From: Geminicoccus sp.
Lineage (GTDB): Bacteria; Pseudomonadota; Alphaproteobacteria; UBA7985
Reading direction: 5' to 3'
DNA length: 46,347 nucleotides
Assembly: GCA_002705565.1 (NCBI GenBank)
Contig: PAHJ01000096.1
Span: 1 to 46,347, forward strand
In this document: one piece after another, positions 32,237 to 43,991 of the stretch
How the letters are laid out: every line of letters starts with the position of its first letter
Position numbering within the stretch: position 1 is the stretch's first letter
Program-made: the position numbers and the translations under genes
The notes under the pieces: model-generated
Database searches by the model: none
Told to the model about the DNA's origin: nothing
The model's input: only the letters and a program-made list of their open reading frames with translations

Positions 32237-32260
32237 GCGTCAGGCACGCCCCCCACAAAG

Positions 32261-32295
32261 AAAAAGCCTCCCTGCGATGCAGGAAGGCTTTTTTT
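32261..32295. terminator. Bidirectional intrinsic terminator between DUF1761 gene and rpoC
   Basis: AAAAAGCCT (32261-32269) pairs with AGGCTTTTT (32285-32293). An inner CCTGC/GCAGG stem closes on GAT. A-tracts and T-tracts on the two sides make it work in both directions, ending the DUF1761 transcript (plus) and the rpoBC transcript (minus). Confidence 0.92.
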
Positions 32296-41350: not shown

Positions 41351-42454
41351 TCAGTTCAACCCCGATCTAGGCCCCTTGGAATTCCGTCCAAATGACGGTG
41401 CGCGATGGGGTCTCTTTGATTGAGGTGTTTGGTGGCTCTTTGACCTGTGTGCCGGACGATCCCGCCCTGGCCCGTCGCGTTTGCGGCCGGCAAAAGGTGC
41501 GCGGGGCCGCTTGGGCGAGCTGGGTCCGCCGAGCGGGCGTGCATCCCGCCCCGAAAACGCGAAACGCCCATGGATCCTACCTTCAACCCCTGCCAAGGAT
41601 GGGTCTTTGCGAGACTGTGTGCCCGGCAAACTGAAGGAAACGCCGTCCACGTACAGCGTTCCGTCCTGCTCACCCGGTAGACCGGACAGCACAGCCCCCT
41701 TCAACCGTGTCGGATCAAAAATCGTCCGTGGTCGCGTGACGGCTTCACGCACCACCAAGCGTGGCTCAGCTTCCTGTGACAGATACCCTCTGACCGTCGC
41801 GCGCGTGTTGGCGTAGAGCTGTACGCCGTCGAGCAGCACGACAGGCACACCGGCAACACGACCATTCCGCGTCACCGGTCCGGTCACGATCGCTTCCCGG
41901 CTGGTGGTTTGCTGCACATTGGCGGCTTGAATAATGCCGCGATGATCGCGCAGACCGGTGACCACAACCCAATCACCGCTGCGCAGCGTCATGGTTTCGG
42001 TGAAAGACGGCAGGATGACGTACTGACCCAAGACCTTCAAAATCCAAAGACCCTGGCTTTTACCAATCTGACTGATGGGACCGAGCAGCGCGAAGGTTGC
42101 ATCGATCCGGCTGGCAGTGAACGTGCCGTCTGCCGCCTGAACAGCTTCGACAGCCACAGTCTGCCCCAAGCTCAACTCGCTTTCGCTCGCAGGACGACCA
42201 TTCAGCGTTATCGTTGCGGTATTGGGAATCTCGATGCGCACGTCATTCACCCAGATCGATGAAAACCCTTCGATCAGGCCATAGATGCCCGTACCGCCAA
42301 TGCCGGAATCCAGCCCTGTTCCGCCAATACCGGCATCAATGCCGGTCCCGCCAATGCCGCTCCCGCCCTGCCCCCAACCATGAGTGGGTAGGGTAAGGGC
42401 GGATCCAGCCAACAGTGTAAGCGTTGAGCGCCGGGTCAGGCGGTCACGGTTCAT
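41351..42454 (-). CDS. Exported DUF5666-domain protein with GIGGTG repeats
   Basis: A 367-residue predicted exported protein. The N-terminus (DRLTRRSTLTLLAGSALTLP) is a Tat-like twin-Arg signal. The mature start carries three GIGGTG copies on a 9-residue period (33-38, 42-47, 51-56). DUF5666-type beta domains follow (WVNDVRIEIPNTATITLNGR and the next strands: SLGQTVAVEAVQ; later GDWVVVTGLRD). The last 65 residues are Arg/Pro/Lys/Ser-rich and likely disordered, as in other DUF5666 proteins. Function is unknown. Its ATG overlaps the stop of the DUF6502 gene by 4 nt, a translational-coupling arrangement, so the pair probably acts together. Confidence 0.72.
   Translation of the reverse strand: MNRDRLTRRSTLTLLAGSALTLPTHGWGQGGSGIGGTGIDAGIGGTGLDSGIGGTGIYGLIEGFSSIWVNDVRIEIPNTATITLNGRPASESELSLGQTVAVEAVQAADGTFTASRIDATFALLGPISQIGKSQGLWILKVLGQYVILPSFTETMTLRSGDWVVVTGLRDHRGIIQAANVQQTTSREAIVTGPVTRNGRVAGVPVVLLDGVQLYANTRATVRGYLSQEAEPRLVVREAVTRPRTIFDPTRLKGAVLSGLPGEQDGTLYVDGVSFSLPGTQSRKDPSLAGVEGRIHGRFAFSGRDARPLGGPSSPKRPRAPFAGRKRDGPGRDRPAHRSKSHQTPQSKRPHRAPSFGRNSKGPRSGLN
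42284..42367 (-). repeat. 27-nt imperfect tandem repeat encoding GIGGTG units
   Basis: About three copies of a 27-nt unit encode the 9-residue repeats of the DUF5666 protein (GIGGTG plus a variable triplet such as IDA or LDS). Synonymous changes between copies show it is not a fresh duplication. Confidence 0.7.
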
Positions 42455-43275
42455 ACGTCGACCTCATCTTGATAGAAGTAAACGCCGATACGAACACGCC
42501 GTGCGGCTTCGTTGGGCACCTCGGCCTCGTCGGGCGTCTTCTCAGACAGCTCACCCATGTCAGCCAAAAGCGCCATAGCTGATACGGACAGGGCATCGCG
42601 CAATACCTGCACCTGCGCCGGCGATACTTCCGGATTGAACATGGCGCGCTCGAAGTAGCGGTGGTCGGGCGCCGCAGAAATATTGTGGATGGCCGCGCTC
42701 AAGTGGTCTCCGACGTTAGCAGACAGAAATTCAATGCTTTCCCTCGAATTTGCTTCGGGAAGAAAGGCGGCTGACTTCAGCCGATACGTGCCGTCCTGCA
42801 AGTTTTCGACCAGTCCGGCCGCTATTAATCCCTCAAGGACTGATTTAGCCCGAACTTCTGGGCCGATTTCTTCTACAAGTTGGGCAAAGCTGGGGCCATC
42901 GCTGTGCTTAGCCATGGGAAGCACCAAAGGCTGCCCCTGTGGATCGCGATAGCGCCGGTTAGACGACCAGCGCGTCACAACGCGGGCGGAAGGGCTGTCG
43001 GTGGTGGGCCGCACGGTATTGGGTTCGTGTGCACGCTCCTTGATCCAGCGTGAGATTTCACGGCGATGGATGCCGGTGGCTACGTGCAGTGATGACACCG
43101 TTACTTTGGCACCTGATCGCTCAAACTGCGAAAACGCCGCCTCCAACGTTGCGTCCCGCAACGCAGTTTCAAGCATGCCGTGTGACAGCCCCATGCGTAG
43201 TCCGCCTGCCGCTATCTCCTGCATCAATCGATGCGCTGCCGAGAGATAAGCCGCCTTTGTATCCTGATCGGTCAT
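42451..43275 (-). CDS. DUF6502-family helix-turn-helix protein
   Basis: A 274-residue cytoplasmic protein that matches the DUF6502 pattern. An N-terminal domain ends in a helix-turn-helix, VTVSSLHVATGIHRREISRWI (about 58-78), which looks DNA-binding. A linker carries RVVTRWSSNRRYRDPQGQPLVLPM. A second domain follows (SFAQLVEEIGPEVRAKSVLEGLIAAGLVE). The C-terminal helical part ends YFYQDEVDV. No catalytic motif is seen. The combination suggests a transcription factor of unknown effector. The stop overlaps the ATG of the DUF5666 gene, and the start faces a region with strong palindromes (43325-43430), so autoregulation is plausible. Confidence 0.75.
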   Translation of the reverse strand: MTDQDTKAAYLSAAHRLMQEIAAGGLRMGLSHGMLETALRDATLEAAFSQFERSGAKVTVSSLHVATGIHRREISRWIKERAHEPNTVRPTTDSPSARVVTRWSSNRRYRDPQGQPLVLPMAKHSDGPSFAQLVEEIGPEVRAKSVLEGLIAAGLVENLQDGTYRLKSAAFLPEANSRESIEFLSANVGDHLSAAIHNISAAPDHRYFERAMFNPEVSPAQVQVLRDALSVSAMALLADMGELSEKTPDEAEVPNEAARRVRIGVYFYQDEVDV

Positions 43276-43347
43276 TGGTCTTCAGTCATTGTTGCCCTGT
43301 GCATGGTCTGCAGACGCCACGCTTTTCCTAGGAATGCTTTGTATCGC

Positions 43348-43363
43348 CTTTTTGCGCAAAAAG
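43348..43363. repeat. Perfect 16-bp palindrome CTTTTTGCGCAAAAAG
   Basis: The sequence reads identically on both strands with no loop, so it is better as a dimeric-protein site than an RNA hairpin. It lies 15 bp upstream of the -35 element of the small-protein promoter. Confidence 0.6.
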
Positions 43364-43377
43364 CTCACGTTTTTTTA

Positions 43378-43406
43378 TTGACGTGCGCGTTGCGCTCACG
43401 TATCTG
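43378..43406 (+). promoter_or_regulatory. Sigma-70-type promoter for the small secreted protein
   Basis: TTGACG (43378-43383) and TATCTG (43401-43406) are 17 bp apart, the ideal spacing. The -35 is near consensus and the -10 only half so. The predicted start of transcription falls near 43413, about 100 nt before the TTG start. The left arm of the large inverted repeat lies across the spacer. Confidence 0.55.
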
Positions 43407-43430
43407 TGGTTTTGTGAGCACAACGCACAC
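43383..43430. repeat. 17-bp-arm inverted repeat overlapping a promoter (operator-like)
   Basis: Left arm 43383-43399 (gtgcgcgttgcgctcac) and right arm 43414-43430 (gtgagcacaacgcacac) match as inverted repeats at 15 of 17 positions, with a 14-nt centre that contains the -10. This layout suits binding by a dimer that blocks RNA polymerase, or an RNA hairpin at the transcript's 5' end. Confidence 0.65.
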
Positions 43431-43512: not shown

Positions 43513-43872
43513 TTGAAAACTCTCATTCTCTCAACCATCACCGCATCCGCCATCAGCCTTTGCATGGTCACGTCCGCCCACGCTGTTGATTGTAGCCGTT
43601 TCGAAGACCGCTCCGCGTTCTTCACATCGATTGGCCTGACCGACTCAGCCAGCTTCTGGGATGAAGTTGCGACCGAATGTGCCGCGAGCGACTGGTCCAG
43701 CAGCGACCGCAAAACGGTTCGGGACAACATTCGCACGCTCACCACTGAAAACGCCTATGAGCGGCCGGACCGTGAGACCGTAAGAGACGCAGCGGAAGCA
43801 GCCGGTGTTGAGGTTCGTGACGCACGTCACGGCAAGCGTAAGAAGGGATCACGCAGCAAGCGTTCCGATTAA
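43513..43872 (+). CDS. Small secreted protein with internal DR(K/E)TVRD repeat
   Basis: This 119-residue protein is not recognised. It has a clear signal peptide (about 1-24, cleavage AHA-VD), and the mature part has two Cys (C27, C56) that could form a disulfide. Two related segments, SDRKTVRDNI (64-73) and PDRETVRDAA (85-94), are spaced 21 residues apart. The C-terminus is strongly basic (HGKRKKGSRSKRSD). The start is TTG at 43513 with AAAGGA 8 nt upstream. It is driven by the promoter at 43378 and followed by a strong terminator at 43956. It is divergent from the DUF6502-DUF5666 pair, sharing their control region, which suggests a common function. Confidence 0.65.
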   Translation: MKTLILSTITASAISLCMVTSAHAVDCSRFEDRSAFFTSIGLTDSASFWDEVATECAASDWSSSDRKTVRDNIRTLTTENAYERPDRETVRDAAEAAGVEVRDARHGKRKKGSRSKRSD

Positions 43873-43955
43873 TTTAATCGCCGCGAGCTTATCGAACACA
43901 GGGAACGCTAACCCACGGCTCCTTCCCCATGATGTGGATCAGGCTTCCTTGCGTG

Positions 43956-43991
43956 AGGGTCACCGAACTTGATTTGGTGACCCTTTCTTTT
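43956..43991 (+). terminator. Intrinsic terminator after the small secreted protein
   Basis: AGGGTCACC (43956-43964) and GGTGACCCT (43976-43984) form a perfect 9-bp stem with an 11-nt loop, followed by TTCTTTT. It ends the plus-strand transcript 84 nt after the small gene's stop. On the minus strand there is no T-tract on the correct side. Confidence 0.88.

What the first reader, a model, noticed from the sequence alone, without database searches (positions are those of the whole stretch)
43383..43430. Large inverted repeat spanning the promoter of the small secreted gene
Arms of 17 bp match at 15 positions around a centre that contains the -10 element, with the -35 end at its left edge. Such a long repeat placed over a promoter is unlikely by chance and is typical of an operator. 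It may alternatively fold as an RNA hairpin at the very start of the message.
Basis: seen in the sequence. Interest (0 to 1): 0.66.

Follow-up and report, generated by a model that had tools for sequence, protein, structure and literature searches.

The report
Repeated operators of a DUF6502 regulator
The inverted repeat is two of three evenly spaced copies of a 17-base DNA-binding site on a two-way promoter, and matching sites beside the same gene across Proteobacteria suggest that DUF6502, a protein family with no known function, is a self-regulating gene switch.

Summary
In detail: arms 43383-43399 and 43414-43430 match at 15 of 17 positions (2 of 1000 shuffles give as much). The unit, however, is not the long repeat. 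Each arm is itself a 17-bp near-palindrome, (K)TGNGC-N5-GCNCA(M), and a third copy lies at 43352-43368; the three are exactly 31 bp apart (about three helical turns). Three same-genus genomes keep copies 1 and 2 between the divergent DUF6502 and small secreted genes; one has lost copy 3, and with it the inverted repeat.

In other families the DUF6502 gene has a palindrome of the same layout just upstream, usually TGGGA-N5-TCCCA (25 of 39 loci, 5- or 6-bp centre). A promoter with the operator in its 17-bp spacer occurs in 15 of 39 loci; among 385 Alphaproteobacteria its strict TGGGA form occurs five times, always beside DUF6502. A DUF5666 gene is adjacent in all 28 DUF6502 genomes where one was detected.

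Best reading: DUF6502 is a dimeric helix-turn-helix autoregulator, probably a repressor, controlling itself, DUF5666 and a divergent secreted protein. Binding, repression and start sites are inferred. No paper in the library names DUF6502. The RNA-hairpin alternative is unlikely.

The parts
43352..43368 (.). operator copy S1, TTGCGCAAAAAGCTCAC; over the likely -35 region of the leftward (DUF6502) promoter
   Evidence: TGCGCAAAAAGCTCAC identical in all four genus members
43378..43383 (+). -35 element TTGACG of the rightward promoter
   Evidence: conserved in four genus members and 11 loci of other families
43383..43399 (.). operator copy S2, GTGCGCGTTGCGCTCAC (left arm of the reported repeat), filling the spacer of the rightward promoter
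43401..43406 (+). -10 element TATCTG of the rightward promoter (17-bp spacer)
   Evidence: TA conserved at this place in 15 loci; not a strong consensus match
43414..43430 (.). operator copy S3, GTGAGCACAACGCACAC (right arm), at the expected start of the rightward transcript
   Evidence: kept in G005 and G001, lost in G004
43338..43343 (-). possible -10 (TACAAA) of the leftward DUF6502 promoter
   Evidence: read by eye; inference, not conserved clearly in relatives
42451..43275 (-). DUF6502 gene (PF20112), proposed regulator with N-terminal HTH
   Evidence: Pfam 76.1 bits, cut-off 27
41351..42454 (-). DUF5666 gene (PF18914), overlapping the end of DUF6502; exported protein with GIGGTG repeats
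43513..43872 (+). small secreted gene, TTG start (ATG in relatives), 119 aa, genus-only, no Pfam match

Best explanation
The region is the shared control region of a divergent gene pair. It carries three phased copies of the 17-bp operator of the neighbouring DUF6502 protein. DUF6502 most likely binds each copy as a dimer through an N-terminal helix-turn-helix. S2, between -35 and -10, and S3, over the start site, would block rightward transcription of the small secreted gene. S1, over the leftward -35 region, would make DUF6502 and DUF5666 autoregulated. The 31-bp spacing puts all three copies on one face of the helix, which favours cooperative binding; an unknown envelope or external signal would release it. 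Shown here: the sites, their conservation and spacing, and their specific linkage to DUF6502. Inferred: that DUF6502 is the binder, dimerisation, repression rather than activation, cooperativity and the signal.
For: Three 17-bp pseudo-palindromes at exactly 31-bp steps; S1, S2 and the promoter conserved in three relatives with the same divergent pair. TGGGA-N5-TCCCA with at most one mismatch upstream of DUF6502 in 22 of 35 non-genus loci, 36 sites against 0.26 in shuffles; 25 of 39 loci with a 5- or 6-bp centre. Operator-in-spacer promoter in 15 of 39 loci, 0 in 500 shuffles, with further copies 29-36 bp away in several. Its strict form occurs in 5 of 385 class genomes, all five at DUF6502 although only 16 of the 385 have that gene. 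No site at two DUF5666 genes far from DUF6502. Conserved HTH-like motif TxSRxSxxTGxHRKDVxRL, with S61, G68, R71 invariant. Difference at residue 72 (K or R) goes with the difference in site.
Against: No binding or expression data. The HTH is read from sequence: the model is poor, no PDB relative, only one sub-threshold HTH match. S3 is lost in G004. The genus half-site (TGNGC) differs from the family's TGGGA, so the link rests on layout and position. Some DUF6502 genes (L133, L138, L139, L145) show no clear site. The K72/R72 pattern is not strict (f3 genes) and the loci are not phylogenetically independent.
Confidence: 0.8

Rival explanations
1. The sites are operators of a different regulator, encoded elsewhere, that happens to control DUF6502 loci.
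For: Binding is untested, and the HTH in DUF6502 is inferred. A few DUF6502 genomes have the site at other genes too.
Against: The strict promoter is found only in genomes with DUF6502 and only beside it, over large distances and with different divergent genes; the site differs where the DUF6502 helix differs.
Confidence: 0.1
2. DUF6502 binds here but as an activator, not a repressor.
For: The -10 elements are weak (TATCTG, TATTGC and others), and S1 at about -53 of the rightward start could serve activation.
Against: S2 fills the space between -35 and -10 with a normal 17-bp spacer, and S3 lies on the start; both positions usually block polymerase. MerR-type activation from such a position needs a 19-20 bp spacer (general knowledge).
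Confidence: 0.15
3. The repeat is an RNA hairpin in the 5' end of a message: the small gene's on the + strand, or a long DUF6502 leader on the - strand.
For: The - strand folds well (-32.6 kcal/mol, z -5.0).
Against: Any inverted repeat folds. The pairing is lost in G004 while the single units stay. In other families the copies are short palindromes at varied distances, not a long stem. A + transcript would carry only the right arm. No Rfam match, and no terminator-like site at the repeat.
Confidence: 0.04

Closest known systems
Autoregulated divergent operators of small dimeric repressors (TetR- or MarR-type layout; general knowledge)
   Same: Regulator gene divergent from a target, palindromic operators of about 17 bp over both promoters, one of them between -35 and -10.
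   Different: The protein belongs to PF20112 (DUF6502), with no detected match to those families; three phased copies; constant DUF5666 neighbour and varied exported targets.
MerR-type operators between -35 and -10 (general knowledge)
   Same: A palindromic operator fills the promoter spacer.
   Different: The spacer is 17 bp, not 19-20; unrelated protein; additional phased copies.
DUF6502 (PF20112), Pfam family of unknown function
   Same: The neighbouring regulator candidate is a clear member, and its relatives carry upstream palindromes of the same layout.
   Different: The window's genus has half-site TGNGC and R72 where most relatives have TGGGA and K72.

Membership tests
DUF6502 (PF20112) | Pfam score over the curated cut-off | tested here: met
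   76.1 bits, cut-off 27, residues 11-269
DUF6502-type operator as described here | 17-bp palindrome, 6-5-6 layout, upstream of DUF6502 | tested here: met
   S1, S2, S3
DUF6502-type operator as described here | half-site TGGGA | tested here: not met
   genus half-sites are TGCGC, TGAGC, TGTGC; best TGGGA match has 3-4 mismatches; hence a variant
DUF6502-type operator as described here | operator in the spacer of a TTGAC[AG]-N17-TA divergent promoter | tested here: met
   all four genus members, 15 of 39 loci
Autoregulatory repressor operator | DUF6502 binds the site and lowers transcription of its own promoter | not testable with these tools
   needs gel shift and reporter assays
Helix-turn-helix DNA-binding protein | HTH fold in the N-terminal part | tested here: inconclusive
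   conserved HTH-like motif; model helices 60-67 and 71-82 but mean pLDDT 41; no PDB relative; sub-threshold HTH_29 in L008
MerR-type promoter | 19-20 bp spacer | tested here: not met
   17-bp spacer in 15 loci
Known structured RNA or intrinsic terminator | Rfam match, or stem followed by a T run | tested here: not met
   no Rfam match up to E 1; no terminator-like site at the repeat

The most novel reading that the evidence does not exclude
DUF6502 is an unrecognised, Proteobacteria-wide family of autoregulatory DNA-binding proteins with a readable operator code: TGGGA-N5-TCCCA, often built into a TTGAC-N17-TA promoter. It governs DUF5666 and varied secreted or surface proteins. In the window's genus, and in a few other lineages, the putative recognition helix (K72 to R72) and the operator half-site (TGGGA to TGNGC or TGTGC) have changed together.
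Probability: 0.65. Interest if true: 0.7.

Novelty: new variant of a known kind. Interest (0 to 1): 0.6.

Why it matters
It gives a testable function and a binding site to a protein family of unknown function found across Proteobacteria, and a search pattern for its targets. So far these look like exported proteins (a fasciclin lipoprotein, a calcium-binding repeat protein, small charged secreted proteins) and a polysaccharide exporter. The shift of site and recognition helix in the window's genus may be a natural case of a regulator and its operators changing specificity together.

Tried and rejected
RNA hairpin: rejected, see rivals. Relatives of the small secreted protein outside the genus: none in genome contigs or viral contigs. 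Single window-type sites elsewhere in the genus: a few scattered copies, mostly with G+C-rich centres, no second tandem. Tandem GTGGG...CCCAC in 399 phylum genomes: mostly unrelated hairpins, but one true second target in G736. A strict K72/R72 site rule: 25 of 27 against 0 of 12 within 250 bp, softened because the f3 genes keep a one-mismatch site further upstream and the loci are not independent. Structure: the model from four sequences is poor and was not used for a fold search. The tool accepted it, but I did not collect or use the result. A regular expression was one base too long and found nothing; one search is the corrected run.

Full report
Observation. The reported repeat is real: arms 43383-43399 and 43414-43430 pair at 15 of 17 positions with a 14-nt gap. 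It is one of two of that quality in the window, and 2 of 1000 shuffles of the intergenic region contain one. It lies between a leftward DUF6502 gene (42451-43275), followed by an overlapping DUF5666 gene (41351-42454), and a rightward small secreted gene (43513-43872, TTG start). TTGACG at 43378-43383 and TATCTG at 43401-43406 are 17 bp apart.

The unit. Aligning the intergenic regions of three same-genus genomes (G004, G005, G001), which keep the same divergent pair, shows that the conserved part is TGCGCAAAAAGCTCAC...TTGACGTGCGC.TTTTGCTCA..TAT (window itself slightly diverged in the second A/T run), not the 48-bp repeat. Each arm is itself a near-palindrome, (K)TGNGC-N5-GCNCA(M). There are three copies: S1 43352-43368, S2 43383-43399 and S3 43414-43430, at steps of exactly 31 bp. 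S1-S2 spacing is 30-32 bp in relatives; S3 is 31 bp from S2 in two and lost in G004. A scan of 84,980 species for the S1-S2 pair found 49 stretches; three are these same relatives (records titled MED803, SP156 and an uncultured alphaproteobacterium), the only ones that also encode DUF6502 and the small protein. The rest I judge from their sequence to be coding or simple repeats.

The wider family. DUF6502 homologues in other alphaproteobacterial families (about 25-32% identity) and in other proteobacterial classes were collected. Their upstream regions carry palindromes of the same 17-bp layout, usually GTGGGA-N5-TCCCAC, in one to three copies. In 35 non-genus loci, 36 sites with at most one mismatch to TGGGA-N5-TCCCA occur in 22 loci within 250 bp; shuffles give 0.26 sites on average, maximum 3. 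With a 6-bp centre allowed (L123-L125), 25 of 39 loci have one. In 15 of 39 loci the operator fills the spacer of a divergent promoter, TTGAC[AG]TG-N11-CA[CT]-N-TA, never seen in 500 shuffles. Other copies lie 29-32 or 39-52 bp away on the DUF6502 side and, in several loci, 34-36 bp on the other side. L113, from another family, has the full three-site layout of the window.

Specificity. The promoter TTGACRTGGGAN5TCCCA occurs in 5 of 385 class genomes. All five hits lie at the DUF6502 gene, and only 16 of the 385 have DUF6502. Two DUF5666 genes far from DUF6502 have no such site. DUF5666 is nevertheless the constant neighbour: it is adjacent in all 28 DUF6502 genomes in which it was detected.

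The binder. The most conserved part of DUF6502 includes TxSRxSxxTGxHRKDVxRL, with S61, G68 and R71 invariant in 39 sequences. It reads as a helix-turn-helix. Support from structure is weak, the PDB has no sequence relative, and one homologue has a sub-threshold HTH_29 match over this stretch. Residue 72 is K in 27 proteins, 25 of them with a TGGGA site within 250 bp, and R in 12, none with such a site. Sites of R72 types include TGNGC in the window genus, ATGTGCGTTTTGCACAT in L140 and ATGTG-N7-CACAT in L141 and L142. The rule is not strict: the f3 genes (R72) keep a one-mismatch site further upstream, and related loci are not independent.

Mechanism. S2 between -35 and -10, and S3 over the expected start, would block the rightward promoter; S1 would cover the -35 region of a leftward promoter with a possible -10 at 43338-43343. 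Equal 31-bp steps put the dimers on one side of the helix. Repression and cooperativity are inference. Divergent genes in other families are unrelated in sequence but mostly exported by the look of their N-termini: small charged proteins (L206, L204, L210, L211) and a fasciclin lipoprotein (L205). The same operator-in-spacer promoter with a second copy also occurs toward a polysaccharide-exporter permease gene 5 kb away in G736 and at another gene 2.3 kb away in G024; two sites precede an exported protein in G255, and one precedes a calcium-binding repeat protein in G334. Gene functions here, apart from fasciclin, were read by eye. This suggests an envelope or surface regulon.

What is known. 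No paper in the library mentions DUF6502 or PF20112, and the operator string was not found. The four papers naming DUF5666 do so once or twice and were not read further. The architecture is of a known kind (autoregulated divergent operator); the protein family and its operator appear to be newly linked here. On that ground: new variant of a known kind.

Noticed in passing
41351-42454 (-), and L204, L206, L207, L208, L209, L210, L211: The DUF5666 proteins beside DUF6502 all begin with an export signal followed by GIGGTG (or GMGGTG) repeats, also in distant families.
   Followed up: no
L206:1568-2104, L211:930-1718, L204:2523-2921: The divergent exported proteins are highly charged and repetitive (RRxDxRDFR, RQENR or acidic runs), unrelated in sequence but alike in kind; the window's protein ends in a basic tail.
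   Followed up: partly
L007 and L114, upstream of DUF6502 on the opposite strand: In f12 genomes no divergent protein gene follows the operator-in-spacer promoter closely; instead a conserved stretch of about 190 bases ends in a strong G+C hairpin followed by T's, so the target there may be a small RNA.
   Followed up: no
L009, L010, L011 upstream of DUF6502: The f3 genomes of the same order have a far-spaced conserved inverted pair, ATAAATTCCCATTTAC and GTAAATGGGAATTTAT, about 200 bases apart, unlike the 17-bp layout.
   Followed up: partly
43955-43985 (+): Terminator-like hairpin GAGGGTCACCGAACTTGATTTGGTGACCCTT with a T-rich tail downstream of the small secreted gene.
   Followed up: no
32259-32295: The only other inverted repeat of similar quality in the window: AGAAAAAGCCTCCCTGC / GCAGGAAGGCTTTTTTT, 3-nt loop, probably an ordinary terminator.
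   Followed up: no
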